A stretch of 64,000 nucleotides of DNA from Paulownia fortunei (taxonomy: Eukaryota > Streptophyta > Magnoliopsida > Lamiales > Paulowniaceae). Each line of letters starts with the position of its first letter. Position 1 is the stretch's first letter. The position numbers were made by a program, and so were the translations under genes. This document shows positions 4,299-51,091 of the stretch, in pieces. Under the pieces are notes generated by a model. The model had not been told where the DNA came from and made no database searches. It saw nothing but the letters and a program-made list of their open reading frames with translations. The stretch covers positions 2,877,865 through 2,941,864 of the forward strand of contig CM033119.1 in assembly GCA_019321725.1 (NCBI GenBank). Reading direction: 5' to 3'.

Positions 4299-5162
4299 TC
4301 AAGGTGTCGAAAAAAGTTCATAGGCAGACAGTTCAAATGAGCCCCAATTATCAGTTACTAGATTTGCAGAGATTCTGAACTGATCATCAGGTGAAAATAA
4401 TCCAAAATCTTGCACCTGCACCATTGGCTGTGATTGGGATCCAAAATTTGGCAAATCTGTACCCTCTGACCATATTATATCTGCTGCTAGTTCATCACCT
4501 AGTATACCCTGCTGCAGCTCAAACGCATTAGAATCCTGGTACACAAAATCTTGACCATCAATATCTTGATGCATGGAGAATTGAGGAAGCACTTGTTGTA
4601 TCTGATCATCTGCCCCACTGATCAAATCCATCGGTTTTTGATACTCAAACATTGTAATATCTTCCATTTGGCTATCCATGTCCAAAGAACTCGCCTGGAC
4701 ATTATCTGATGACCCACTGCTAGCTCCAGGGCTGAGAGACTCCTCATTTTCCACATTTTGGTTCACATACTTTGCAAACACGGCGGCCATATCGATACAC
4801 GCGCCGCTTTCAGATTCATTAGTGGACCCCACGCACACCGGGCTAAGGGTGGGGGCCGCGTAGTCGGCGCCTCCACCTTGCCTGGTGGCCCTGGCACGAC
4901 GGCTCTTTCGGCAGCCGCCACCGACGGGCACGTTCCTCAAGGAGCCGCCCTTGGTCCAATACCTCCGGCAGCCCTTGCAGAAGTACCGGGGCTGGGACAA
5001 GCTATAGTTGTTGTAGTAGCAAAATTTGGTGTTGGAGGAAGCACATCTTGGGCAATTTGGTGCTAACTCAATGTTGCTACACTTCCATTTTGTTGTAGTC
5101 CTGTCCATGACCAATGGCCTAATTGGTGGGCACTCCAAAATTGAGTACTCACTAGTGAACAT
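4299..5162 (-). CDS. Dof zinc-finger transcription factor
   Basis: Intronless frame of 287 residues. Residues 37-65 carry the Dof C-x2-C-x21-C-x2-C finger (C37, C40, C62, C65) with the family hallmarks YYNNY, QPRYFCK, CRRYWT, GGSLRN and PVGGG, followed by a basic stretch (RKSRRARA). Dof proteins are plant nuclear factors that bind AAAG cores. After the finger come a Ser/Asn-rich linker and an acidic, Gln-rich C-terminal half, typical of an activation region, with no second domain. The N-terminus is short (36 residues before the first Cys). By eye the finger most resembles the Arabidopsis DOF1.2/DOF3.5 type, which is recollection and not an alignment. The start is the first ATG of the frame, and a TATA-like box lies 64-72 bases upstream. 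The single-exon structure is common in this family. Confidence 0.97.
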
Positions 5163-5225
5163 GTTAGAAGATAGAATTTTTTCAAGAAAGAATTAGATAG
5201 TGTGGTATGGTGGATATATTGAAAT

Positions 5226-24170: not shown

Positions 24171-24216
24171 TTGACTAGCAATCCTTAGATATTCACTCCA
24201 TCATCTCATATAAATA
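24171..24216 (+). promoter_or_regulatory. VQ gene core promoter: W-box and TATA box
   Basis: TATAAATA (24209-24216) lies 132 bases upstream of the VQ ATG. A W-box core TTGACT (24171-24176) sits 33 bases further upstream. Another TTGACC occurs at 23446-23451. WRKY factors bind such boxes, and MKS1-type VQ proteins bind WRKY factors, so feedback control is conceivable. A six-base match alone is weak evidence. Confidence 0.4.
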
Positions 24217-24347
24217 TTTTCCTTCTTAACATTACCAAAAATAAAAGGGTAATACCTACCAGCATTTATTGTCATCACCAAAACAACCACCATCTCTTCC
24301 ATTTCCCTCTCCACACCATTCAACACTCCACCACCATCGCGGCCGCC

Positions 24348-25049
24348 ATGGATATGTCCGACATCCCTTCTGGCCGGTCTCCAAGGAGGGAGATCCAAGG
24401 GCCCCGCCCCGCGCCTCTGAAAGTACGTAAAGACTCACACAAGATCAGAAAACCACCGGTGGCGCCACCGCCAGCAGCTCAGCCTCACTACCCTTTCCAC
24501 GCGCCTCCACGGCCGCCAGTCATAATATACACAGTCTCACCCAAGATAATCCATGCAAACCCTAATGAGTTCATGTCACTAGTCCAACGTTTGACCGGCC
24601 CAAACTCCTCATGCACCTCACCCTCAACTTCTTCATCTTCTGCTTTTGCTTTCCAAGAAAGCAGCGGCGCAATATCGCCGGCGGCCCGTTTCGCTTCCAT
24701 CGAGAAAACGAAGTCCCCCGATGGAAGAAAAACACAGGTTTTTGATCAAAGTATAGGAATGGTGGAAGGGATAGAGATTGGAGCAGATGTTCAGAGGACT
24801 GGACAATTCCCTGGAATCTTATCTCCAAATCCAAATGCTCTTCCACCAATCCCACCAAATTTTTTCTCCCCTCCATCGGATAACAATCCCTTAAGCTTTT
24901 TCTATGACTTGAGCCCCGTGTTACATAGTAACAGGAATTACTTAGAGAATAATTTCATCTTGCCTAGTCCCTCAACTTTTATTTCACCCCACATCAACAC
25001 GCCTTCTCCAAATACTTTAGATCTTTTCCATTCTTTATTTGACCTGTAA
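24348..25049 (+). CDS. VQ-motif protein, MKS1 (VQ21)-like
   Basis: Intronless frame of 233 residues starting in a strong context (GCCGCCATGG). The VQ core FMSLVQRLTG occupies residues 75-84. Upstream, GPRPAPLKVRKDSHKIRKPP (18-37) and VIIYTVSPKIIHA (58-70) match the layout I recall for Arabidopsis MKS1. So do the downstream SPAARFAS, GILSPNP, FFSPPS and Pro-Ser repeats. MKS1 is a nuclear substrate of MAP kinase MPK4 that holds WRKY25/33 in defence signalling. The many Ser-Pro pairs here are candidate MAPK sites. The length agrees with MKS1 (a little over 220 residues). An A-run (about 25078-25097) lies in the 3' region. The related VQ20/VQ8 proteins are the main alternative assignment. Confidence 0.93.
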   Translation: MDMSDIPSGRSPRREIQGPRPAPLKVRKDSHKIRKPPVAPPPAAQPHYPFHAPPRPPVIIYTVSPKIIHANPNEFMSLVQRLTGPNSSCTSPSTSSSSAFAFQESSGAISPAARFASIEKTKSPDGRKTQVFDQSIGMVEGIEIGADVQRTGQFPGILSPNPNALPPIPPNFFSPPSDNNPLSFFYDLSPVLHSNRNYLENNFILPSPSTFISPHINTPSPNTLDLFHSLFDL

Positions 25050-27671: not shown

Positions 27672-30600
27672 TTAAAAATTGCCCGATCCATAACTAGAAC
27701 AGTTACTCAGTGGGCTACGAGGACTCCGATCACCACATCCCTTCATTGTCACAGAAATTTTACCCCCACTGGAGCCAGCATCATTCGGTAGATCTGCATG
27801 TATTATGGGGTTGTCCCCCAATTCCCCTCTACATGAATGAGAATGTGATGGGGAACTCTGCTTTCCCCTAAATACTCCCCATAGATAATACTTGCCCTGA
27901 AATCCTGCAGAACTATATAGTCTAAGAGGTTTGCTTGTACAAGAATTAAAGGGCAACTATGTGAAAAATTCAGCGGCAACGTTAATAGACATCGACAAAA
28001 AGACGACTCAAACTTACTCCAGTATAGCAGTGGCAATTCCGTCGAAGTAAAAATCAGAAGCTCAGCATTCTGCACAATGGCTTTCAAAGCAAGTTCTTTA
28101 CGCATCATTTCCTCAACCAAGTGGTCAAAAACTCGTTCACTTCCATAGAAAATTATTAAAGATAAAGTCAATGAGAAAGCACAAAAATCTAAAAGGGGAT
28201 CAAAGAGTAACAAACAGGTAACGGCAAAAAAAAAAAAAAAAAAAGCAAACTGACACCTTATCTCGGATGGAAAGAAATAGAGTGCAATATTATCGCCACT
28301 GGGTTCTGATGTCTCAAAACTTTTTGGCCATACAACGGATCTTGGAAGCATTTCCAGTTGAAGTACCGGTTGAAACTGACATGCCTCCTCATATACTTTT
28401 TGGCATGCTTTGCTAGACATGTGAGCTATAAGCCCATCAAGTATCTCATGTTTTTTGTTCCAAATATTGAAACTTCCCCTGTCATTATTAAGCAAATTGC
28501 TGATAAGCATGGCAGTAAATATGTAATTTCAGTAAATTTTTGTCCATAATATGATTTTTCTCACCTCCAAATTGGCATGACAACTGGTTCAGCAGATGAG
28601 ATATCTAAATCTTTTGGAAGATCGTTGCAGAAATTGTTCCTACGGCGACGTGCAGAGCTCCTCTCTTCTCCATCTTCTGATTCTCTATTATTGATATGGT
28701 CCTTGCTTGGGCCGAATTTACTTTGTTCATTACTCGTGTCAGCACACTGATTTTCTAAGTTGAACCCTTTACCTTCCTGGAGAGGTTGACCAGAGCCAGT
28801 TCCATGCATTTGCTCCTGCAGAATGGCTTCAGACGACATAACAGTTTTCTTCTTCTTTGAACTTTTCAAAGGTCCATTACATATAACAACAGGATGCTCT
28901 GCTGTGCAAGGATCAGTATCGGAATCCAAAGGTTTCCAGGAGATACATTCTTGACCTTTCTGCTCAGAGCCCTTATTTTCTTTCACCTTAGAAGGTAATG
29001 TAGAATCACTCGCCAATCTGGCGCACTCACTGATGTCTACTTTTACGCGTTCCTCATGAGATTGCTTGGATGATGTATTACCAAGTCTATCCTGGTCTTT
29101 CACCATAGTGGATTCCGTAATACTTCTCTTTTTCTTCTTATTTTCCTTCAGGGTGCCATCTGATAACCTCGCGTGCTGCATCAGATTGCCCTTGGCCTTT
29201 TCCTCCTCAAGCTGTTGGGAAGAGCTCTGCTGACATCTATTTCTTTCATCTGCTGGCAAAAGAATAGCATTTTCATCATTCTTCCCTCCTAATTGCATAA
29301 GATTACACTCCCTGGCTGATTCACCACATTCAACAAAATCAAGTTCTGTGCAAGCATCATATGATTGCTCAGGCCCATCCTTATAAACATGCTCCAATGT
29401 TTGAACTACCACTAAATTTTTTTTCTTTGTTCCAACCCCAGACAACCTTTTAATGTTTTTTGAAACTATACAATCTCTTGTCTGGGATGGGATGGCATCA
29501 TGGTCGGAAACAGCAGATTGGTTTTGCACTTCTGCTTCACAGTCATCACAAGCCCAATGAACAAATTCATCAAAAGTCTCCGGTATTACATCCAGACAGT
29601 AGCTGAAAAAACAAAAAAAATAGTCAATCAGAAACATTCCCATCCTAATCCTAGGTTACAGCATGAGAACAGTACATATCCAAATACCCCCAGCTAAAGC
29701 ATGAGTACAGTACATGTAGCAACACAATCAATGACGAGTTAATGGTTAAACAAATTGAACATAATAGGTCTCCACCCCAACAATATATATAGCAAAAATA
29801 AGTAAAAACCATAGTAGTCTGGGACTAAATCATCAAGAAATCCTCACACAAATTCAATGCCACACGCCAATGTCAATCTCATCACAGAGATTCACATACA
29901 TTACACTTTCTTTTTTCCTTTTGTATCTTTCTGAATTTACAAGAGTATCAGCTAAGCTAAATGAGAAAAAGAATAACTAAAGTTAGGAAACAAGGGAACT
30001 AAGGAAAGGTATTAGCTTCCATTTCTGATACTTCACAGGGCTTTAGAAGGAATAAAGTTCCAACGGCAACGTGTTTACATTTGGCTCCACAAATACAAAA
30101 GAAACCAGAACAGAAAGGCAAAAGGCTCCTCAGCTATGGACCCTAATGGCAAAGCCAATTATATGTGTTCAAACCTGAAAGAGTAGGTAACGAAGATGTG
30201 TCTACTTCTTACTTCGGTCTTTCTTTGCTAACCTCCATTCCCCAAACTACTTCAGTCAATGCAATTTGCAAAATTCACAATCCACAAAACAAGTTGTTCC
30301 TCTTTCTTGGGGTCAGAGCAGGAAAATGTTAATACTTTTTGGAGAATAATAGGACAGCGAGTATCAAATTGTAGTACACAGAGCATAGTTACATTGTTTA
30401 ACTTTAGACCAGACCAGTAAGACACTAAGTACATATTTGGACTTATTTGATACAGGCCAAACCACAAACAGCACAACGGTGGCTTCTTTATCAACCATCC
30501 ATACTATCTTAAATATGCGATCAAACTAAAAGAACAAAAGACAATTAATGGTTTTAAAATCTCTAATTTACTCCACCATTGGTCTGGCGTGCTAGAGCCT

Positions 30601-33322
30601 GCAGTTTAATAATAGAAGGTGAAATTTAAAATAAAAGTTAGAACTTTTTTCTGCATATACCATGCACGGAGAGAGAGAGAGAGAGAGAGAAATTAAGAAG
30701 GGGGCAATGCCACCACAGAAAGGGAAAGAGGGGGGAGAGTCTGAATGGGGAAGGGAAAGTTATAACATCAGCACTATGAGGCTTACCGATGCACAGCAAC
30801 ATCCAGACATTTGACACAGTATACAAAGGCATTAGTGAATCCTCTATTGCCACACTGCAGACATATTGTCCCCTGCATGATGAATTTATACACAAGTCAA
30901 CCATAACATAAGCTGGTTAATATAATCTAGGAATCAGTTGCTATTTCTTCAAGCACAGTTCAAACGAATGTTGAAAAGCATTAAAGCCGGTTGATAATAT
31001 GGAAACCAGAATTAATAATTTCCTAAAAATTCTTGTAGACATAAAAAATCATTGCCAAATTATGCATTTACTTATCAATTTTATATTTTCATTTATTTTT
31101 AATCCTTATTAAATTCCAAGATTAGATAAAGTATGTATCTGATAGCAAATCAAATATCATCAGGCATGAAATTCTGATATTTTGGCAATTCAAATCATAG
31201 ATGTGAATGTCAATGTTTTAGTAATCCAAATCAAATGTTGTGATTAAGTAAATATCCATCAAATCAGGAAGGGTCAATCAAATAGTGTCACTTCATACAT
31301 AATCACAACAAGAGCTCTTATCCTACAAGTATAAATAGAGTAATATCTAAGAAGCAAAATACACAAGTCTAAAGAGAGACATTGGAAGAGGTTCAAAATT
31401 CTCTCAACTCAAATTTATCAAATTCAAGAAGATTCACAACGTTCACGGCATTCAAAATCATAGTGTTTAATTTGAGATTATGGTGCTAAACCATCGAATT
31501 AGTATTATAAAGATATCAATATACTGATTGTATCCACAATGAAAATAATATAGGTTAAGCCATTTTTCAATTCTTTCCATGTAAGCAGTTAAGCCTAATG
31601 ACATCAATATCTATGGAAGGAAATGATCTTTTATGTTGATTAAAACAATCAGGCTTAAGATACCTGATATAAAATAAAGTTCTTTTTACATAATAAGGAG
31701 GTCCAGATGCTTAAAGAGTTTCGAAAATATTTTTTGTTCTTCATAATAGTACACCACAATGAAAATTATCCATAAACGAATACAATTAATTGGAAATTAT
31801 GTTCTTTTGATTCTGTTTGCATGAAGATCACTATTAATTATGCGGTGGCACTCTTTGGACCTTAAGGCACTTTCTATAGTGCAGGAATATATGTCAATGT
31901 CATCCTTAGAGACAAACAATACATATTCAATAAGCATTAATTAACACAGAAGCATCATTATTTTCATCTGATTATATGTCCAAAAGTTTGCAGTAAATCC
32001 AGAAGTAAAAGATGGACATGGATTTGGGTGAAACAATTGCTATGGGCTACCAAATCCGAAAAGGTAAATAAATATCGAAACAAAGATCGAGTGATAAAAG
32101 TTTTACTAAATCAAGCTAATAACAACCATATGTAAATTACGTCACATATCCGAGGAAATCACTAATTACACGAAAACCCAAGTCCATAAATTACAGTAAA
32201 TGAAAAAAATACGAGCAACACATCCATGTGTGTAGAAGAATGAACATTCAAGTTTCCATAAGCATGGAACCGGTTAAACTTTAAGCCCACCTTGGTTGTA
32301 TCTTTCAAAGTACTCCTATCAATGTCATTTGTTGTTTCGTCAAAGGAAAAGATAAATGAAATGAAACCTAAATTGTCAATGATAATAGTGAGGAAAAGAA
32401 AAATACACATATTATACACTGCATTAGCAACATGTGTGGCCTTTTTGAGTGTCTGTTTCAGCATATCACAGTCAGCCTCATTAATTTGTTCTTTAATGGG
32501 AAAGAAAGATTTATTGCTAATTTCCACTAATTCTACCAGACATTTTAAGATTTATCAAGATAACCTGTACCTAATGCAATAAAAGGTAAACCCTTTTGCA
32601 ATGATAATAAGCACTTGTGTCACAACAGCAATTGGCTGGACAAGAAAGCATGAATCACTTTTCTAATTGAGATAATAAGCAACAAATGCAAAGTTAACGG
32701 CCCCAACTGATTGTACACGGAGCTCCAAGTGTCGCAAATTTGATTCCATTAGTAACTGAACATTAATCTGCAACAACAAAGCCATGCTTCAACATTGATA
32801 CGTCATTTTCACCAAAGGGAACCGTCCCCACCCTCCCACGTACAAACACACACAAATTTGTTTCCAAGTAGCATCCAATGAACAAACCTCGCTTCACTAA
32901 ATCTTTAAATTTTGCCCAAAGTCCAACCATAACCTCAATAAATTTGGGGTCTAACGACATAAAGGGACAATTAGAAGTCCAAGATTTCCTAAAAAGACTG
33001 ATTTTGCAAGAGCACAAATCCACATGCGAAACATTGAACAACTTTGACTTCCCAGGGCAGGAAAAGAAAAAAGAAAAAAGAAAAAAATAAAACAAAATGC
33101 AAGCGCGAAACAGTAAACACGAACGGGAATTTACAGGAAGAAAAGTCACAAAAAATCTATGATTAGAAAAACAGCACTGTTATTTAACAAACAAAATAGT
33201 ATTCAAAAACCCATATACACATGCACCTATATATAGATTTTCACAATGCAGATAGGATATCAGAAAATCCCAATTAACAAAAAGGCGGAAACACAGAGAG
33301 GACGGAATAGGAAGTGTACCAT
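27672..33322 (-). CDS. Gene A: PHD-finger and SPOC-like protein, AIPP2/PAIPP2 family
   Basis: Six coding exons: 33320-33322, 30787-30872, 28565-29602, 28257-28478, 28018-28139 and 27672-27904. All phases agree, giving 567 residues. Residues 5-51 form a complete C4HC3 PHD finger (C5, C8, C20, C23, H29, C32, C48, C51). Residues about 52-365 are a charged, low-complexity linker with several KKK runs that suit a nuclear protein. Residues about 370-503 are the SPOC-like domain seen in Arabidopsis AIPP2/PAIPP2 and related PHD proteins, with IWRGSF, AHMSSKAC, LEMLPR, VVWPKSF, IALYFFP, LALKAI, AELLIFTS and FQGKYYLWGVFRG. In Arabidopsis these proteins read histone marks and join a BAH-PHD-CPL2 complex that represses transcription; the role here is inferred. 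The ATG is the last three bases of exon 1, ahead of a 2,447-base intron, and begins M-G-T-I-C as relatives do. Its start is less certain than the rest. Confidence 0.88.
30669..30691 (+). repeat. (GA)n microsatellite inside gene A intron 2
   Basis: A GA dinucleotide run of about 23 bases, roughly 95 bases past the donor of the PHD exon. No function seen. Confidence 0.9.
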
Positions 33323-36560: not shown

Positions 36561-39500
36561 CTAAGGCATTGAAGCTAAGTGAGTCTCAAGTGATTGAATT
36601 TCAAATTGCATCCTTTGCAAATTGGCACTCTTCTCCTCTATTAATTTTTGAAGACTCTCTTTTAGGCATGTATTTGTGATCTCATCGAGAGTTTCTTGGA
36701 GGATGTGATGTCGCTTTTCAAACCAGTGGGCTTCGCTGGCTGTCCTCTCAGTCTCTGTGAACAAAACATGCATAATGTGAATTTGTACTCAATTCTTTTA
36801 TGAGGGGCAGAAGGTTTAATTTTTTGAGGAATTATTATGATGTGCAGGCTTAAAGGTTTTGTTCCTTATGAAATGATGTTGAAAAAGATGCAGGTTCAAT
36901 CATATTATAGGGAGTGAGACAGGCAAAGTATACTGCTTACTGATTAATGGAGTATACCTTGTAATACTCCTCTGTCAGTCTCCTTTGGATTTTTCCTATA
37001 TTTCTTTGTTCCGTCAGCCATCAAACTTTTGACTTCCGGCGACACATTAGGGCAACCTTCCAACTGCATTGTAGGATCACCTCCACCCAAATGTGCCTTC
37101 AGTCGTGCAATTCCTCCACGTTTAGAAACAAAACCACAATACTTGCATTTTGTGGCCTGTCTCATTTCATCCAGCGGTATAGCATGCTCCCATGTATCAT
37201 CTAGTGGCCTTCCCCTCTTAGATGGTTTGGCAGAATCTGCTTGTTTCAGGGAACAACGAACTTGTTAAACAATACAAGGCTCTGGTACAAAAGTAAAGTG
37301 AATGAATTAAAACCAATCACTCCAGTTGAAGTGCTTATAATCTGAGTGTCTTTGACATGATAATAAAAAACCAGTGGCATAGCCAGGAACAAACTCCGTG
37401 ACTCTTCATCTGGAGAAGATTTTAATTCATGAGTCATTTGATTCAATGATTTGTGTTTCACGATACCTAAATGAGAATTCTCCTTAACGAGAGATTGACT
37501 AATAGTACTAGGTTACTTCTTTAGCGAGATAAAATCCAAGCAAAATAGAAATGTTTGCTTCATTTTGAACCTTATGAGCTGCTGCCCAAACTTCTGTATG
37601 GACAAGAAATCAGCACATACCAAACTAGATATAATATTGAGTCCATTGCAAATCATACGTCTTTGTCCCTATTGTATAACTCCAGTGGTGAACCTCGACA
37701 ACTGATAACTAGTATATAAAATAGCAAAGGAAAGAAACACAGAGTGTATGCCCTGTTCTAACACACTTTATTTGCAAAAGTATATAGAATTTTCATGTAA
37801 TATTTCTGTTTCATGCATCGCTGAAGACTTACCATGAGACTTCCTTGTCCAAGTGGCCGTTGAATTTTTTGCCCACTCATTGAACCACTGTTCCATCACT
37901 CTTTTAACTCCTAGTGACACCTGAGGGCAACCCCGCAACTGCATTTGAGGACACCCTCCACCCAAATGCGCCTTTAAACGTGAAATTCCCCCATATAGAG
38001 AAACAAAACCACAATAATTGCACTGTGTCTTTTGCCTAGCCTCATCCAATGGCACTGCATGTTCCCAAGCATCATCTAGTGGCCTTCCCCTCTTTTCGAC
38101 TTGCACACCAGCTGCTGCAAACATGCACTCCCCACCCCAAGAAAGGGAAGAATATGAGAGAAAAAAGAAAGTCATCTCGATCAGGAATCAATGATTTATC
38201 ACAAGTTCAAAATTGAGTCAAGTAAATAAATACTGTTTCAGTTTCACTGATATTATATAGGTATGTATACCATAGGAAGAATAATCAAAAAATTTCATCA
38301 ACAATGAATGCACTGCTATCAAATGACCAAGAAGTTAATGTTGACCATCAGTGAGATTTTCCACAGAGTCGCAATATAAAATCAATCAAAAAAAGAAAAG
38401 AATGCAAATGCAAAAAGTATGTATACCTTGAGACTCTTTCATCCTAGATGCTGTCAAACTTTTCGCCCATTCGGACATGACTCCTTTCATTTCGGGTGAC
38501 ATAGAGGCTGTCGAATGTTTTACTCTTTCAGACATGACTTCTTTTATTTCAGGCGATACCTTAGGCCAAGCTTCCATGTGCATATTTGGATCTCCTCCAC
38601 CCAACTGTACCTTATGATGTGAAATTCCCCCACGTAAAGAAACGAAGCCAAAATACTTGCAATCTGTCTTCTGACCTGCTACATCCAATGGCTTGGCATG
38701 TTCCCAAGCGACATCATGTGGCCTTCCCCTTTTATCAACATGTGCTGCCGATTCTGCCAATACCCATCACCACCCCAATAAAGTATAGCAGAAAAAGAAA
38801 ATTAAAATAGAGCACATTAGGAAGCAATGTCTATCAAGATTTTCTTGAACTTAACGAGATGCGTGAACGCAGCAGTTGATTTTGAGCACTAGTTAATTCT
38901 AAACGAGTTTACTATGCTAAGATAAAGTATAAAATGAAAGCAATATATAAATTGTGTACACCAGTCTCTCAGTCAAATGAAATCAACCATGTACTTATAC
39001 CTTAACACCAAGCAATGAGAGTGGCTCCACATCCTATTTTGAAGTGAAGTAAATTAAAAAAATGATCTTTGTGACCTGCTTTCTCTTGTTTCCACTGAGT
39101 TCTTTAGTCTTCAACGTTATTCTTCTTAAATTTGATTTCACTAGAATTTCAAATTTCCAATAGATTATATTTTTCCTCTGTTTCTTTCTTTCCTTTTCTT
39201 TCTTTGTTCTATTTTTTTTCTTTTTCTTTTTTCTGTTGGATTGTCTTTTACTCCATCTTTGTTCTATGTCAAGAAATTCGTATTAGTCATTGCACCTGAA
39301 AAAAGTAACTTCCGAAAGAGTGAAAAATTATCTTAAACTTGAAAAGAAAAACTCAGAAGTTAGATTCTGACAGAATACAACTACACTTCTACAGTATTTA
39401 GCTACAATTCTGAAATATATAAATTCTTGTTTTACAAAGATTTTTCTAGTAATAAATTTTGTAGTCTAAAGGTTATCGATTAATTCAATGAATTATTGAT

Positions 39501-42500
39501 ATTAGATAAGTATATACATACAATAAAGAACCAAAAGAACAATTTGATTCATTCAGAGATCTTTGGTAGTAATATCTTTTAAAATCTTGTATCTGTAAAC
39601 AACAAAACTTTTATGTATTTAGACAAAAAAACATGCAATTTTTGTTCTATATTGCGGGCCGTATTCACTTTCTTAGAAATCTCTCTCATACCGACCAGTG
39701 CAAATAAGGGACTAGGTCAATGTCATTAAAACACCATAAACATGTAATAGTGTCAAAACTCAAAAGGAAGACCTGAATACTATCATTCAAATAGCATCAA
39801 CCACAAGCAGGTAAGTGGCTCTCTGCTTGGCCACAAAATTTATGACTCTAGACTAAAGTATGCACATGATGTTACTGCATTGTATCTCACTTAAGGCATA
39901 CCTTTAATTTCCTTTGTCCAAAGAGCTTTCGTGTTTTTCACCCATTCACTGAACCAGTCAGCCATGACTTTTTTTACTTCAGGTGACACCTTATGGCAAC
40001 CAGGTAAGCGAATTCTAGGGTGACCTCCTCCCAAATGTGCCTTAAGGCGTGAAATCCCCCATGCGAAGAAACAAAACCACAATACCTGCACTCTGCCTTC
40101 TGTCTTAGTACATCCAATGGTTTGGCATGTTCCCAAGCACCATCTAATCGTCTCCCCCTTCTATCAGCTTTAGCAGCATGTCTTACTAATCTCCCAAAAG
40201 CAGAAGTAAGAAAAGAAGCAAAAAGAAAGGCATAAGGCTGCCAAGATACCCATCAAGTACATCAACATTATAATAGGTTACTAGTAAAATGAAGTAAATT
40301 AGAAACAGGTATACATTATTAATATAATTAGCAATAGGAAAGTCAAGCAAGACCATCACATGCTTCAGAGTATACATTTTTTCAATTTTATTATCTTAAA
40401 AAGTATAGAATAATAGCAATAACAAATGTATGAGAAAAGTAAATATTTGAGAATATCTCCATCCTACAGGAACCCAAAAAATAATGATAACAACAAAATG
40501 AGGCCAAATATGAAGAAAAAATTCCCAGAAACAAGAGTTGACTTGAAATATATGGCTAGTACACTCATACAGCAACAAGTAGTAAAGTCACATCTAACTG
40601 AATGATGGAATCTCAAGAGCTCTTGTGAGTATTTTTGTGTTTCATTGTCATTAAATAACATTGTATTGTATTAAAATGGCCAATATTCAAATGGACGTTG
40701 CATGATACTTTATTTTATAACTAAACCAGTACTAGGATTCATGTCACTTGAAAAGAAGATTCTTGTGTTTTACATGGAATTCTTGAAACGGTTACCAGTT
40801 TAAGAAAAATGACACTTGAGTCAAGTTTCCTTTCATGGTAGTTTAAGCAAGAGATATCAGCCAAAATTTCATGCCTTTCCCAGTAAAATGTGAGTAAAAA
40901 ATGCCTCAGGGACAAGAATATAGGTGTAACATGACAATGATGTTTAAACACCAAGGCAGACAACAGCTGCAGTTACTAGCATATAATGACTACATAATTT
41001 GAAGCTAGAAAAACAAAGTAAGAAAGCAAGTAAACAATGGTTGGCTTTGTTCCAAAAGATGGTAAAGACTATAAACACAAGCGTGAAAACAGAAACATGA
41101 AAACTGAAGCATCCATTCCCAAAGAAGCTCTAGCCATGTGAAACGAAGTGCATCCATTACCATGATGAGAAAGAGTGAGCAATTTCAACATTCTAATGGC
41201 AGTATTCAATTGGAATTCCAAACATTTATTATGCACCGAAACCAATACGAGGAAGACATATTATTAGATGCTTTTGGCACTAAGAGTAAACACGTGTATT
41301 CAGCATTCTATTCAAGGATAAATAGTGCAGTTCTCCGCAATGGTTCTGCAAATATGTTTGTGGATTTATAAATGACAAAACTATATGGTGATTCTATTGA
41401 GGTGAACAGTCTGAATATGGATGGCGAATTTTAAGATCTAAATTAGATAATGATATGAAGTACAAGCATGACTAACACCATTTTTCAAGGACTTACAAGG
41501 ACTGTGCTTGCTAGAACTGGTTATTGGACTCTCCTTCCCCTCAAAGCTCCTGTGATTGCCTGAATTTGGAGATAAACTCTGCCTCACTACAGGGGTTTGA
41601 ATGTGGACATGATAATCTGATTGATGAGAAGCAGCAGCTTGTTGTCCCTTGAAAACTCCCCACAAATAAAGTTTCCCCTGGAATCCTGCATATTCAAGAG
41701 AACCAAAAGAGGGATAAACTTGAGAAAAGACAATGTCAGTCCACAGCAAAAGGCATAACAATGCTTATATATACACAATTATTCTTGGACTCACTGTGAA
41801 GCCTCTGCGGAAGCTGGAGAGAAGTAAATATTAAGAGTTCAGCTTTGCCAATCATTGCTTTAAGGGCAATGTCAGTGCAGATTGCATAAGTCAGCAGGCT
41901 ATCAAGAACTTCTTCATCTCTGTGAAAGCACTTTGCATGATAAATAGGGGGAACGACAAGGAAAATAAGAAACCATATACTTAATTTGCTTCCCCACCTT
42001 CCCTCCGAAAAGAAAAAGAGTGCAACACTATGTTCGGTGGGTGGCGAACTCTGAAAGGATGCTGGCCATACATCAAGGCGCGGAATCATTTCCAAGCATA
42101 ATGACTCAGGCATCATACTTGCTATCTCCAACACTTTCAAGCATGCTTTGTTTGAGACATGAGCAGCTATATTGATATCTAAATTCTGACTGGGGAGATT
42201 AAACCTCCCTCTGCTCAGAAGATAATCAGCAGTTGTTAGCCATGCTATATCAAGCATAACCCCGTTCTCACCCTATCCCTAATGACTCAGGACAGAAGGA
42301 AAAGGAAGTTACTCAGTAACAAATAAACGGAGTGACACAGAAGGAGAGTTCACGATACCTCCATGCTGGAGCAACAACTGGTCGTGCAGACACACTTAAC
42401 TCATATGCCGCATCACTTTGTTGGTCAGCCATTGCTGCATCCTGGGATACCATGGGAATTTTTTTTTTTTGTGAGACACTTATGAATTTCTCAGCATAAA

Positions 42501-43840
42501 AGAAAATTCCCTGATCTACTGTGAAGTTAAAACTTAAATGTTTCCTAGATCAACTAAATATTATACGGCAAGTCTAACACTCAAGCAAATAAAACAACAG
42601 CCTATGACACAACAAACATAATAAGCATGGAGGAGGGTGTCTTACAACCACGCCCTTGAATTTGGGCACAAAATGATTGTACATCATAAGAGTAACAGAG
42701 TTAAAAAAAAACTCAAAAAATGAAAATAATCATACTTTAGAGTCGAATAGCCATAGAATGGCCAATTCCAATACCAGTCAGGGCAGGGCATAAGAGAAGT
42801 TAACAATGAATTCAGTGAAAAAAATATGAAATATGATGCTACTCTTCCTGAAAGGAATGATTTGTTTTCCATTATACGAGAACAGCAAAGATCTTTTCTT
42901 TCCCATTTGTCAGATGGGAACTAACATTGAACAATCATTCTCACGTAAAGTAACATTTAATTTCAATAGATTGAGTTGTTTCATGTCACCAAAACAATGT
43001 CAAAACCCAGAATACACCACCCATGATTTATGTATCTTTATTTTAAATCGAAATGACCACAATTCCTCAAATTTATAAAATTTTGTAACATGTTATGAAG
43101 TACAAAGTCTTTATTGTTTTCTTTCCTCATTTTTACTTTTCTCTCTTTTGGGCATCTATCCATGAAACTAACCCTGTATGCTTCAGTTTTTTGCAAACAG
43201 AAAACTTCAAATGAATCATGCAAGCATCAACCAAATGCTTAATAGCATTAAATTCAGTAACAGAGCGGATGATCCTGTAGAGTCTGACACCCTGTCTTCA
43301 CATACAGAATATAAAGTTCAAGAAAACATCATGAAATTCTTGCATGGAAAATAACTCACTTTTCTACTGTAGCTACATGAGAAACACCACAACCTAATCT
43401 TCTACAAAAATAAAAATTTTCTTACTCTTCAAAATATGCCTATTCTACAACTCTCCCGAAAAATAGGTAGAATCATAAATGTGAATTATAATATACTTTA
43501 ATTTTTTCTCATTCCAATTTAAATATTGCAGCTGTCCAATTGAGTCAGCTCAAGCAGAGAACTACCACAAATAGAGCAAAATATACAAACAACCAACCAT
43601 AGGAGCCAAAGACCCATTATTCACCTACAGTCCATAAGCCAAAAAAAAAAAAAAAAACACTAAAGAATTGAAGAGAAAATCAGAATTTTTTTGCCTTTAG
43701 GAAAAATAAAATCATACTTACAAGAACTTGGGTATTTAGCATTGACAATCAAAGACGAAGAAAAAAATATATATATACCAATGGAAGAAAACCACGAAAC
43801 ATGATTAAGCATTTACCTGAAAAAAGTTTTCGAATTTCAT
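36561..43840 (-). CDS. Gene B: SPOC-like domain joined to four BED zinc fingers (frame broken in finger 1)
   Basis: Ten exons proposed: 43817-43840, 42359-42441, 41998-42210, 41795-41919, 41497-41685, 39902-40185, 37833-38114 and 38427-38753 (fingers 3 and 2), 36958-37236 and 36561-36754. Exons 1-5 give 211 residues with an AIPP2-type SPOC-like domain (APAWRGRF, AHVSNKAC, LEMIPR, VWPASF, VALFFF, IALKAM, AELLIFTS, FQGKLYLWGVFKG), sharing boundaries and phases with gene A but no PHD finger. Exons 6-9 each encode one BED finger of the hAT-transposase type. Exon 10 is a charged, Glu/Gln/Leu-rich helix, likely coiled coil, ending at a TAG. All phases close to 666 residues if exon 6 had 285 bases, but it has 284, so as read the frame stops after about 281 residues. 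A second in-frame ATG at 42432 has a better context than 43840. A nuclear DNA-binding repressor role is inference. Confidence 0.75.
36958..40185 (-). repeat. Four tandem BED zinc-finger exons, each phase 1-1
   Basis: Finger exons of 284, 327, 282 and 279 bases in order of transcription (39902-40185, 38427-38753, 37833-38114, 36958-37236). Each begins two bases into a codon and ends one base into one, so each is a symmetric, duplicable unit. Shared layout: KRGRPLDD, AWEHA, a C-x2-C-G-F-V knuckle, GGISRLKAHLGGG, then a C before VSPEVK. Fingers 1, 3 and 4 keep the expected C, C, H and C. Finger 2 reads CKYF, KVQL and EAW instead, and carries an internal duplication of the SPE(I/M)K-VMSE segment. 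Finger 1 is frameshifted near 40055. Confidence 0.85.
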
Positions 43841-47722: not shown

Positions 47723-50700
47723 CTATTCACAAGCCAGTTTTGTGTCGAAGCTGCTTAAACAGATGGCGAAGGCCTGAAAGGCAGATAACGGATATCGATA
47801 ATCCATTGTGAACATATCTTTACCAACCTTACCAAACTGCAAGATAATCTTGTCATGATCAGACTGGTTCGGTTGGGATGGTGCTGGGGCAACAGCAGCT
47901 GGCTGTGTCGCAGCAATAAGCTGGAAATTCTTGACAGAGGCAACCGTCACCCTCCCTCTGAAATTGAGGCACCAACACTGCAACTGTTCGTGCCATCTTG
48001 GTGGCTTATTTTTCAGAACCAAAGGTCTATCCTTTCCACCATCCTCTTCCTCACGTGGACCAACCATGTCTGAAAATCTAGCACTGCTGAATTCTGCCGA
48101 GTGATCAATTGATTTAGAAAAGGAAATACTCCTGAATGAATCTTCAAGAGAGTGGGGAATGATCTCAGGTTGACCAGGGACAGTACCACCGGGCTCAATT
48201 GAGGAAGCAGGGATCGAATGCATGATGCAATGCATCCTACGCGGACCCCTTGTGCCAAGCACATTAAGCTCATATGTGACCTGAGCAATGTTGTAACTTC
48301 CACTGGGGAGTTTTGGAGAAACTTTTTTGGAGTAGAACCTACGGCTGGTTAGACCAGGTGGGGAAATATTGGAGCTGTTGTATGGTGGCTGTGTGTCATA
48401 AATTATGAACTTAGTCCCAAGGAAATTCGACCTGGTTCAACAAAATAGCGGGACAGAGTCAGTTCAACAACTAAACAAGGCCCCATTAAAAATAAACGAA
48501 GAAAAAAAGCACTATTACACACAGAAAATTAAAGCAAAGTAAGATCCACTGCACCACAATTTTCTTAAACAACCTCGTATACATAATCAAATCCTAACAT
48601 CCTAACTGAATGTTAGCTTCTCCATGAAGCAGAGGGGGCCGATGATCATTGAATGACCAAGTGAACAATGCTTTTCTCAGGATGGGTGTTTCTTTTTCTT
48701 GATATCATAAACTGGATGTCAGTAAGTTTTGACTTAGATATCCTATGGCGCAAATAACAAACAAAATTTCATCTTTCTATCCATGACATAGGAGTAATAA
48801 ATATTATTACTTTTCCTAAAAGATCATTCAACATGATTTCTTGGGAAATTTAAATTCTGAAACAAAGATTATGTTCACCAATATATGCTACAGGCTTACT
48901 ACCCACTGTAAGAAATAAGCTTGGCCAACATATGACTAATTTGTCATCTAAGAACAAAACCAGAAGAACTAGAAGTGATCAAAAGCACATGGGAACATTG
49001 CAACTTGTTTGCCAAATTCTCAAAGTTCAAAGTTCCAATGTCCAAATATGAGAGTTCACTAATAAATAATTTGACCAATGTTCGTTGGAAAAAGCAAGAG
49101 GAGCAAACATATAATGGTACTGTCGTGAAAACTTTTTTGCTTCCAGATTTGTGATAAATAGCCTTGTTTACCAGCCAATATCCTACCTAGCAAAAGTGGT
49201 TCTTGTCCACTTGAATTAAACCTAAAGGAGATTTGTTTGACTTAGTGTCTCATGGTAATTTTCATTTCAAATTCAACACACAACATCAACATGAGATGAT
49301 CACATTTGCAAGTCTACAAATCAGGTGCAGTCTAGTCTTACCAGAACTTCTAACAAACAAAGTTCTATTTAAATAAAAAAAAAATCCCCTAAAAAGTCCT
49401 TGCTACCATAATTGCAGTTTTGGGGGCTTCATATATGACTTAATACTAACTAAATCTCTTTTACCACAGATTCTTACGAAGGCTCAGTAGTTGATTTGAG
49501 AAAGTAGAGCAAGATAATGTGGTTCATGGGAAATAGACTCACCTCACTTTTCCAACATAACTGCTGCTTGACCTTGATATGTTATCAGCATCCATTGAGA
49601 TCACATACTCCGTACAAGTGGTTCGGCGATTCCGTTTTGCAGAAAGAAGAAATTTACCATTCTCTACAAGTAGGGCTGCAATAACGTAGTATACAGGAAA
49701 ATTAAAAAAAATAGATAAAGTGATTCTAACAAGAAGAACCATCAAGTAAAATCAATACACCACTTCAGTTTAACCATTCAGCTCTAGGCATTGAGCATGC
49801 AATCATCCTACATGGCACTCCCTTATTTTATATTTAAAAACAACTGCGTCATTCACCAAGCCATATTATATCAATGTCTCTTAATTTTTAAAGAAGTACA
49901 ATGACATCATAGTAAAATCAACCAAACACTACAACTCAACATTTTTTTCTTAGCAAAATGACAAGGTAAACAAAAAAATTAGCGGCCAAAAATCCAATAT
50001 TAACAAGACAAAAGTCAAAAGCAACTGTCTATTGTGATAACCAGAGAAATATTTATGGAGTGCTAATCAATTCTATTATACTAAAACTTATACAACTTCA
50101 CTAAAATCACTAGAATACACTAAAACAGGCATCCCACAGCCATAACCCAATGGATGATAAAAATATTGCCCGGCCACGGCAACAAAAGAACAATGTTTAT
50201 CCACAAAATTATCACAGATTTTCAAATTTTCCTTCCCATATCAAAATTAACACACTACCGTTGTCAAAATTCTATATCCAGTTTTTGCCAAAACAGATAA
50301 ATTTCAATATATACAGCTTTGGTTGAAGCAAGCAAAAATGAGATATAACTGAATTATCCAACTTACTTCAAGATCATGATCACAAACACGAATGTGAATC
50401 TAAAAGGCAGCAATTGGTTCATTGCAAGCCATTTACACTGGATTTAGTTAAAAAAGAACAACTTTCAATAAATCCTCCATTGGATTTGGTAACGAGTAAA
50501 AACTCAGTAAGAAACACTTGCCAGGGCTAAGGCAAAGAAACAGATGGTAGGTCAAATTAGACTTGTCTCTCTTAATGAAACACTGAATGGTTCCATCTCG
50601 AAACCCAGGCTGCAGAAAGAGAAACAAACAGCATAGCATCAGCAAAATTGATCGTCAATCAACCATTTCCACAATCAAGTGAATTACCGACTTAACAAGT

Positions 50701-51091
50701 GGCGGCAATAACCACAAGCAAATGCAAGATAAAGAAACCAAACCTGCTTGAGAGATATTGGGAAGGTCAATTTTCCACAATGCTCAGGGCACTGGACAAT
50801 TTCTTTGCACATCTCCCTCCATGACCGGCAAACAGCTGCACATGCAACGATGTGCTTTCGAGCAGGCCATGTACTCTCATTCTCCTCCAACCTCTTAATC
50901 ACATCGCGGAGTAACTCTGGTGGAAGGCTAGCCCAACAACTGCTCTGGATAACTACAGGCTGGTCATGCAACTCATAAACAGCACCATGAGACTTGCCGC
51001 GGTGGTGACCATGCAGCCTCAACTCAAAGCTCCTCCTTGACAAGCTTCCAATACTATCCCTTATGTCACGAGCTAGGCTACGGAACGACAT
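47723..51091 (-). CDS. Tubby-like F-box protein (TLP)
   Basis: Four coding exons: 50744-51091, 50522-50609, 49543-49675 and 47723-48431. They join in frame to 425 residues, close to plant TLPs (about 400-450). An F-box lies at about residues 51-100 ([18 protein letters not shown], then AVCRSW). The Tubby domain fills residues 117-425: [17 protein letters not shown], the core [55 protein letters not shown] and the terminal [19 protein letters not shown] with [10 protein letters not shown]. From memory it most resembles Arabidopsis TLP10/TLP1. Plant TLPs join SCF ubiquitin ligases through the F-box and tether to the plasma membrane by phosphoinositide binding. Intron 2 has a GC donor. The ATG sits at the first base after a TAG acceptor, and an upstream exon ending at 52006 offers an in-frame ATG at 52023, adding six residues (MDANYK). 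Confidence 0.96.

What the first reader, a model, noticed from the sequence alone, without database searches (positions are those of the whole stretch)
36561..43840. AIPP2-type SPOC-like domain fused to a tandem array of transposase-type BED fingers
Seen: exons with an unmistakable AIPP2-type SPOC-like domain are followed on the same strand by four BED-finger exons and a helical tail, and the splice phases match across the whole series. Known: AIPP2/PAIPP2 proteins pair this domain with a PHD histone reader in a transcription-repressing complex, while BED fingers of this plant type come from hAT transposases and bind DNA. Inference: gene B replaced histone reading with sequence-specific DNA binding, using a domesticated finger array, and could direct the same repressor machinery to particular DNA sites. 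I do not know of a described plant protein with this architecture, but I cannot search.
Basis: partly seen in the sequence, partly recalled or inferred. Interest (0 to 1): 0.85.

Follow-up and report, generated by a model that had tools for sequence, protein, structure and literature searches.

The report
Silencing-complex domain joined to transposase-like fingers
A tree gene joins a domain from a plant gene-silencing complex to DNA-binding fingers of the kind used by jumping-gene enzymes; the combination is real and kept in many plants of the mint and potato orders, and it might bring a gene-repressing machine to chosen DNA sites, although in the copy assembled here one finger is broken by a one-base shift and another has lost its zinc grip.

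Summary
The window is Paulownia fortunei (exons match its deposited proteins). One minus-strand gene (43840-36561) encodes a SPOC_AIPP2 domain, four BED-type exons (phase 1-1) and a helical tail. But finger 1 carries a one-base frameshift, hidden in the deposited model by a 32-nt "intron", and finger 2 has lost its zinc ligands. The fusion is no artefact: SPOC+BED proteins recur in many Lamiales and in Solanaceae. In nine rows compared, fingers 1 and 3 are more conserved than the SPOC domain; finger 2 is zinc-dead in all 23 units counted and drifts like a linker. A whole-genome search found this finger type only here; next come BEDs of DUF659 proteins. A PHD-SPOC neighbour lies 3.8-5.7 kb downstream. 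PHD-SPOC genes of Gesneriaceae and Erythranthe have gained fingers related to this array, apparently separately. In AIPP2/PAIPP2 the C-terminus binds the Pol II phosphatase CPL2 and the PHD part binds AIPP3; this gene keeps SPOC and lacks the PHD. Best reading: a DNA-guided adaptor for CPL2-type repression; inferred, untested. No paper found in the searched library describes it. Tomato E4/E8BP-1 may be a relative (name transfer only).

The parts
43817..43840 (-). Exon E1, start codon and MKFENFFQ
   Evidence: In the deposited model P0001; the Erythranthe relative P0014 begins MKFENLFE
42359..42441 (-). Exon E2, N-terminal lead-in to the SPOC domain (ends in AWR)
   Evidence: GT-AG borders and phase; in P0001
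41998..42210 (-). Exon E3, SPOC_AIPP2 domain part 1
   Evidence: PF23121 E 1.4e-30
41795..41919 (-). Exon E4, SPOC_AIPP2 domain part 2
   Evidence: PF23121, two stretches in this ORF; P0001
41497..41685 (-). Exon E5, SPOC_AIPP2 end (FQGKLYLWGVF) and linker; donor GTAAGT
   Evidence: PF23121 at 35-160 of P0001
41438..41496 (-). Read-through of E5 into the intron, stop TAG at 41438-41440; tblastn lines this stretch up loosely with the last exon of gene A, so it may be the remnant of an ancestral terminal exon (inference)
39902..40185 (-). Exon B1, BED finger 1, one-base frameshift; its counterparts in relatives are in frame
   Evidence: groups with finger 1 of relatives
40041..40072 (-). 32-nt stretch that the deposited gene model removes as an intron, hiding the frameshift
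   Evidence: removing it reproduces P0001 exactly
38427..38753 (-). Exon B2, degenerate BED finger 2 (zinc ligands lost) with a short partial repeat of the stretch after the finger
37833..38114 (-). Exon B3, BED finger 3, intact
   Evidence: PF02892 E 7.4e-6; CCHC
36958..37236 (-). Exon B4, BED finger 4, intact
   Evidence: PF02892 E 3.1e-5; CCHC
36561..36754 (-). Last exon, two predicted C-terminal helices and stop
   Evidence: in relative P0003 helices 599-621 (pLDDT about 65-71) and 624-656 (about 71-96)
27675..30881 (-). Neighbouring gene A: PHD-SPOC (AIPP2-like), Pfo_021302, no BED; the deposited model has a further exon upstream at 32708-32767
   Evidence: tblastn of P0048, exons identical inside their edges; PF23121

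Best explanation
A conserved gene of Lamiales and Solanaceae whose protein is a DNA-guided adaptor. The AIPP2-type SPOC domain is the effector end; by analogy with AIPP2/PAIPP2, whose C-termini bind the Pol II CTD phosphatase CPL2, it would bring in CPL2 (or phosphorylated Pol II CTD). The BED finger array, related to fingers of DUF659/hAT-like proteins and multiplied by symmetric phase-1 exons, is the targeting end in place of the PHD/H3K27me3 arm; the two C-terminal helices could dimerise it. Shown: architecture, conservation, gene relations, finger ligands, SPOC fold of the model. Inferred: DNA binding, CPL2 recruitment, repression, dimerisation, and that the SPOC domain is the CPL2-binding part of AIPP2. 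In the Paulownia assembly the copy carries a frameshift in finger 1 that is recent or an assembly error.
Confidence: 0.5

Rival explanations
1. It is a promoter-binding activator of the E4/E8BP-1 and 3AF1 kind: the fingers bind promoters and the SPOC domain contacts phosphorylated Pol II CTD or other partners to help transcription rather than CPL2-dependent repression.
For: Two Striga asiatica relatives bear the name E4/E8 binding protein-1 (P0011, P0021). [quoted passage not shown] tobacco 3AF1 and tomato E4/E8-BP1 are cited as BED DNA-binding proteins (PMC7461821; PMC3365051; passages). Nicotiana P0033 and Solanum P0040 have two fingers, as I recall is written of both 1990s proteins. MED25 and PHF3 are among the structural matches.
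Against: The E4/E8BP-1 sequence was not obtained; a two-BED DUF659 protein (L009) exists in the same genome and could be the true relative. The name was, I assume, transferred automatically.
Confidence: 0.22
2. In Paulownia the gene is a decaying or truncated copy: the frameshift makes a SPOC protein with half a finger, or polyadenylation in intron 5 makes a SPOC-only protein, and the finger exons are no longer translated. (This can be true together with the best explanation, which concerns the family.)
For: Frameshift in B1, stop at codon 282; B1 skipping gives TAA at once; open read-through of E5 to TAG at 41438. No second copy of this finger type in the genome.
Against: Short branches of the Paulownia fingers 1, 3 and 4 (0.025, 0.043, 0.0098); the shift lies in a G/A run; in relatives finger 1 is in frame. 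Third-position excess beyond the shift does not decide, since dead finger 2 shows it as well.
Confidence: 0.4
3. The SPOC exons and the finger exons are two genes merged by annotation pipelines.
For: A 1.3-kb intron separates E5 and B1, and E5 has an open read-through to a stop.
Against: The joined protein is predicted in many species from separate projects, some with several named isoforms. In Gesneriaceae and Erythranthe fingers follow a gene-A-type SPOC domain, so fingers and SPOC exons keep company in two settings.
Confidence: 0.04
4. The fingers act as protein or RNA docking or dimerisation modules, not in sequence-specific DNA binding.
For: A paper passage says BED domains were shown to direct proteins to the plasma membrane and may act in dimerisation or recruitment (PMC7461821); no DNA-binding test here.
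Against: Zinc ligands kept in 112 of 115 units other than finger 2; Hermes and rice ZBED fingers bind DNA (PMC10368747, abstract and headings; PMC7461821, passages).
Confidence: 0.12

Closest known systems
AIPP2 / PAIPP2 (PHD-SPOC subunits of the BAH-PHD-CPL2 complex, Arabidopsis)
   Same: SPOC_AIPP2 domain; same SPOC intron positions as the AIPP2-like neighbour gene A
   Different: No PHD; BED array and helical tail instead; apart from PHD-SPOC genes in the SPOC tree, with weak support. The Arabidopsis proteins themselves were not compared
DUF659 BED proteins, hAT-like (Paulownia L009, L010)
   Same: Nearest BED fingers in the genome outside this gene (E 6e-7 to 2e-6); align along the whole finger
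   Different: This gene has no DUF659 or hAT dimerisation domain
Rice ZBED (three BED fingers, LOC_Os01g36670)
   Same: Several BED fingers in one nuclear protein (PMC7461821, passages)
   Different: SPOC domain not mentioned in the passages seen; sequence not compared here
Tomato E4/E8BP-1 and tobacco 3AF1
   Same: Solanaceae BED DNA-binding proteins; Striga SPOC-BED relatives carry the first name
   Different: Sequences not available here; identity with the Solanaceae SPOC-BED genes is a lead, not a test
PHF3 / SPEN (SHARP) / FPA / SPOCD1 SPOC proteins
   Same: SPOC fold
   Different: No significant sequence match to any solved SPOC chain; paired with other domains (general knowledge)

Membership tests
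SPOC_AIPP2 domain family (PF23121) | Profile match over the curated cut-off along the whole domain | tested here: met
   P0001 143 bits, 1-131 of 131, cut-off 28.1
SPOC_AIPP2 domain family (PF23121) | SPOC fold | tested here: met
AIPP2/PAIPP2 as BPC complex subunit | PHD finger | tested here: not met
   No PHD at E up to 0.01 in P0001, P0003, P0033, P0040; weak PHD matches do appear in P0034, P0035 and gene A P0048 in the same call
AIPP2/PAIPP2 as BPC complex subunit | Binds CPL2 through its C-terminus | not testable with these tools
   Only inferred from PMC7718874
BED zinc finger (PF02892) | Profile match and C-C-H-[H/C] ligands | tested here: met
   Fingers 3 and 4 met. Finger 1 complete only if read across a frameshift. 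Finger 2 not met
BED zinc finger (PF02892) | Solved BED fold matched by the model | tested here: inconclusive
hAT transposase | hAT dimerisation domain or DUF659 | tested here: not met
   Only SPOC, BED and a sub-threshold zinc family in P0001 at E up to 0.01
E4/E8BP-1 | Sequence orthology to the tomato protein | not testable with these tools
   Sequence not obtained; the two original papers are not held

The most novel reading that the evidence does not exclude
A plant counterpart of the KRAB zinc-finger idea: a transposase-type finger array, reshuffled by exon duplication and loss (two to five fingers between lineages in the fuller gene models), joined to a Pol II repressor effector, perhaps aimed at hAT-type elements or their remnants near genes, and repeatedly exchanged with a neighbouring histone-reader gene so that PHD, SPOC and fingers sit in one protein in Gesneriaceae and Erythranthe.
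Probability: 0.12. Interest if true: 0.85.

Novelty: new variant of a known kind. Interest (0 to 1): 0.56.

Why it matters
It would show how a plant histone-reading repressor subunit can be re-aimed to DNA by taking on transposase-type fingers, and that fingers then passed to a neighbouring gene, within a group of plants that includes potato, tobacco, sesame and sage. It makes a testable prediction: CPL2-dependent repression at finger-bound sites without need of H3K27me3. If tomato E4/E8BP-1 belongs here, a 1990s ripening-promoter factor would gain a molecular partner.

Tried and rejected
E4/E8BP-1 identity could not be settled: the original papers are not held, and the third protein search, with finger arrays, returned 56 rows, all of this family, its isoforms or short pieces with such fingers; only the 7996 candidates sharing most words were scored, so a more distant BED protein could be missed. 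PDB sequence searches with the SPOC part gave no relevant match; the rows (proteasome, Niban) are chance. Fold search of finger 3 alone was not significant. A second copy of the gene in the genome was sought: the five matches of this finger type all lie in the window's gene, the other six of eleven are distant. Of those six, I scanned the DUF659 proteins on C19 and C18; L011 (C10) and L012 (C17) were fetched but not looked at, and the C532 and C20 matches were not examined. A sigma-70 promoter scan upstream is not informative in a plant. Codon positions: third-position excess beyond the shift (23 of 48 and 25 of 54 differences) is matched by dead finger 2 (45 of 90, 47 of 104), so this does not show constraint. 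Papers: among those holding at least two of SPOC, BED and AIPP2 (47; 20 shown, those with most terms first) no row shown holds all three, and none holds BED-type with SPOC-like; the absence holds for that library and those words only. Rows dropped: the SPOC tree left out 5 of 43 chosen proteins because my pattern missed their domain (P0002, P0054, P0060, P0062, P0067). The finger tree used 19 proteins and units of 40 bits or more, so decayed finger-2 copies are absent, and Paulownia finger 1 of the deposited model was replaced by the window's own. In the ligand count 6 hits under 20 bits were dropped of 144; the rest include isoforms of one gene, both the window and P0001, one canonical hAT-type BED in P0042, and two Paulownia finger-1 rows counted as CCHC although one was written across the frameshift with X and the other lacks the loop. 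The identity means use 8 chosen relatives; one (P0018) has a cut tail, which lowers the tail value.
Full report
What is there. The window lies on contig C15 (2877865-2941864) of a 509-Mb assembly. Its two SPOC genes equal deposited Paulownia fortunei proteins: the exons of gene A (Pfo_021302, P0048) match without a difference inside their edges, and gene B (Pfo_021303, P0001) is reproduced letter for letter from ten exons once 32 nt are cut from finger 1. Gene B runs on the minus strand from 43840 to 36561: E1 and E2 lead in, E3-E5 hold the SPOC_AIPP2 domain, B1-B4 one BED-type unit each, and the last exon two predicted helices. The introns next to the finger exons are phase 1, so finger exons can be duplicated or skipped without changing frame. 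The unit is a DNA repeat as well.

Two of the four fingers are damaged here. Finger 1 is one base short in a G/A run; read straight, the protein ends at codon 282. The deposited model avoids this by removing a 32-nt GT..AG stretch, too short for a plant intron (general knowledge), which also removes part of the finger. Finger 2 has C-F-Q-W in place of the C-C-H-C ligands. Whether the shift in finger 1 is real cannot be told without reads. The finger-1 branch is short (0.025), which speaks for a recent shift or an error. Differences from fingers 3 and 4 beyond the shift fall most often at third codon positions (23 of 48, 25 of 54), but dead finger 2 shows the same (45 of 90, 47 of 104), so that is no proof of constraint.

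The fusion is conserved. The joined query met 39 clusters at E up to 0.001; 38 of 39 carry both PF02892 and PF23121; only the 7998 candidates sharing most words were scored. A Nicotiana relative as query met 68: SPOC-BED proteins of Lamiales and Solanaceae, and SPOC proteins without BED elsewhere (Vitis, Coffea, Cornus, Asteraceae and others). Among the named hits I saw no SPOC-BED protein outside Lamiales and Solanaceae; some hits are from unnamed contigs, and the searches rest on shared 5-residue words. Some entries are isoforms or odd models: P0023 and P0026 are fused to neighbours; P0025, P0027, P0030, P0031, P0036 and P0037 lack finger 1; P0043 (Solanum dulcamara) joins a finger to a hAT dimerisation domain (PF05699), and P0042 of the same locus carries a canonical hAT-like BED.

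Conservation. Over nine rows, mean pairwise identity is 84% for finger 3, 81% for finger 1, 73% for SPOC, 61% for finger 4, 50% for the tail, 49% for finger 2 and 47% for the linker. Ligands are CCHC in 112 of 115 units other than finger 2 and in 0 of 23 finger-2 units (caveats under Tried and rejected). In the model of the Handroanthus protein P0003 the SPOC domain has block pLDDT 82-97, finger 1 about 77-90, fingers 3 and 4 about 86-94, the last helix 71-96 and the helix before it 65-71, while 291-414, which holds finger 2, is under 50. So three fingers are kept and one has become linker-like.

Origin. In the SPOC tree (38 rows) gene B of Lamiales and Solanaceae form one group with weak support (85/44), apart from the SPOC genes without BED. 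Holding Lamiales B, Lamiales A, the chimeras and two more Lamiales rows together as one clade, as if B had arisen within Lamiales, is rejected (AU p 0.008), and so is joining all BED-bearing genes (p 0.0004). The PHD-SPOC-BED proteins of Henckelia and Primulina and of Erythranthe fall within the gene-A group. Their fingers fall within or beside gene-B fingers: finger 1 of the Erythranthe chimera with Erythranthe finger 1 (95/91), two Gesneriaceae fingers inside the finger-4 clade (97/87), the first Gesneriaceae finger by itself (only 77 columns). So fingers passed to PHD-SPOC genes, apparently twice; the four chimeras also sit together in the best SPOC tree with support of only 37/20, so one event is not excluded. 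Close locus tags (Pfo_021302/021303; OROMI_030580/030581; ABFS82_03G087900/088100) agree with a tandem pair; unequal crossing-over is my inference.

Finger source. In the whole genome this finger type was found only in gene B (5 of 11 matches); next come two DUF659 proteins on C19 and C18 (E 6e-7 to 2e-6), whose fingers align along their length; that DUF659 proteins are hAT-like is general knowledge. The genome has about 14 SPOC_AIPP2 places (my count of the 26 rows); none but gene B has fingers of this type.

Function. Foldseek and VIA-align place the N-terminal domain with SPOC domains of SPOCD1, FPA and PHF3; Ku and MED25 score alike. [quoted passage not shown] AIPP2 and PAIPP2 bind CPL2 by their C-termini and need the PHD-PBR part for AIPP3 (PMC7718874, section 6 read), and the complex represses through CTD dephosphorylation (abstract and passages). 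Gene B keeps SPOC and lacks the PHD; that SPOC is what CPL2 binds is inferred from the order PHD-then-SPOC in gene A. Rice ZBED needs each of its three fingers for its association with DNA (PMC7461821, passages); if that holds here, the Paulownia copy as assembled may not bind. Phosphoserine-binding residues of SPOC were not tested.

Link to older work. Two Striga relatives are named E4/E8 binding protein-1. Papers cite tomato E4/E8BP-1 and tobacco 3AF1 as BED DNA-binding proteins (passages; speaks of light-response and fruit-ripening proteins), and one calls E4/E8BP a positive regulator of ripening (passages). I recall that both are said to have two fingers, as the Nicotiana and Solanum SPOC-BED proteins do; a two-BED DUF659 protein (L009) fits that too. 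It remains a lead.

Verdict. Mechanism plausible and testable, not shown.

Noticed in passing
window 40041-40072: The deposited gene model removes a 32-nt 'intron' that hides a frameshift in finger 1.
   Followed up: yes
P0032, P0034, P0035 (other species); P0039 with one finger: PHD, SPOC and BED fingers together in one protein in Gesneriaceae and Erythranthe.
   Followed up: partly
P0042, P0043 (Solanum dulcamara LOC129904724): Isoforms join SPOC-BED gene exons to hAT transposase pieces, perhaps a recent hAT insertion between finger exons.
   Followed up: no
G000 C25, C26, C170, C185, C95: SPOC_AIPP2 matches with several stops on smaller contigs, four of them with near-equal scores, like multiplied pseudogenes.
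   Followed up: no
window 4299-5192 (-): Dof zinc-finger transcription factor (PF02701).
   Followed up: no
window 24189-25049 (+): VQ-motif protein (PF05678).
   Followed up: no
window 47723-48436 and 50684-51091 (-): Tub domain and F-box exons, likely one tubby-like F-box gene (PF01167; F-box).
   Followed up: no
P0002 Buddleja: Five finger units, two of them sister copies among the finger-3 units (100/92): the array still changes in length.
   Followed up: partly
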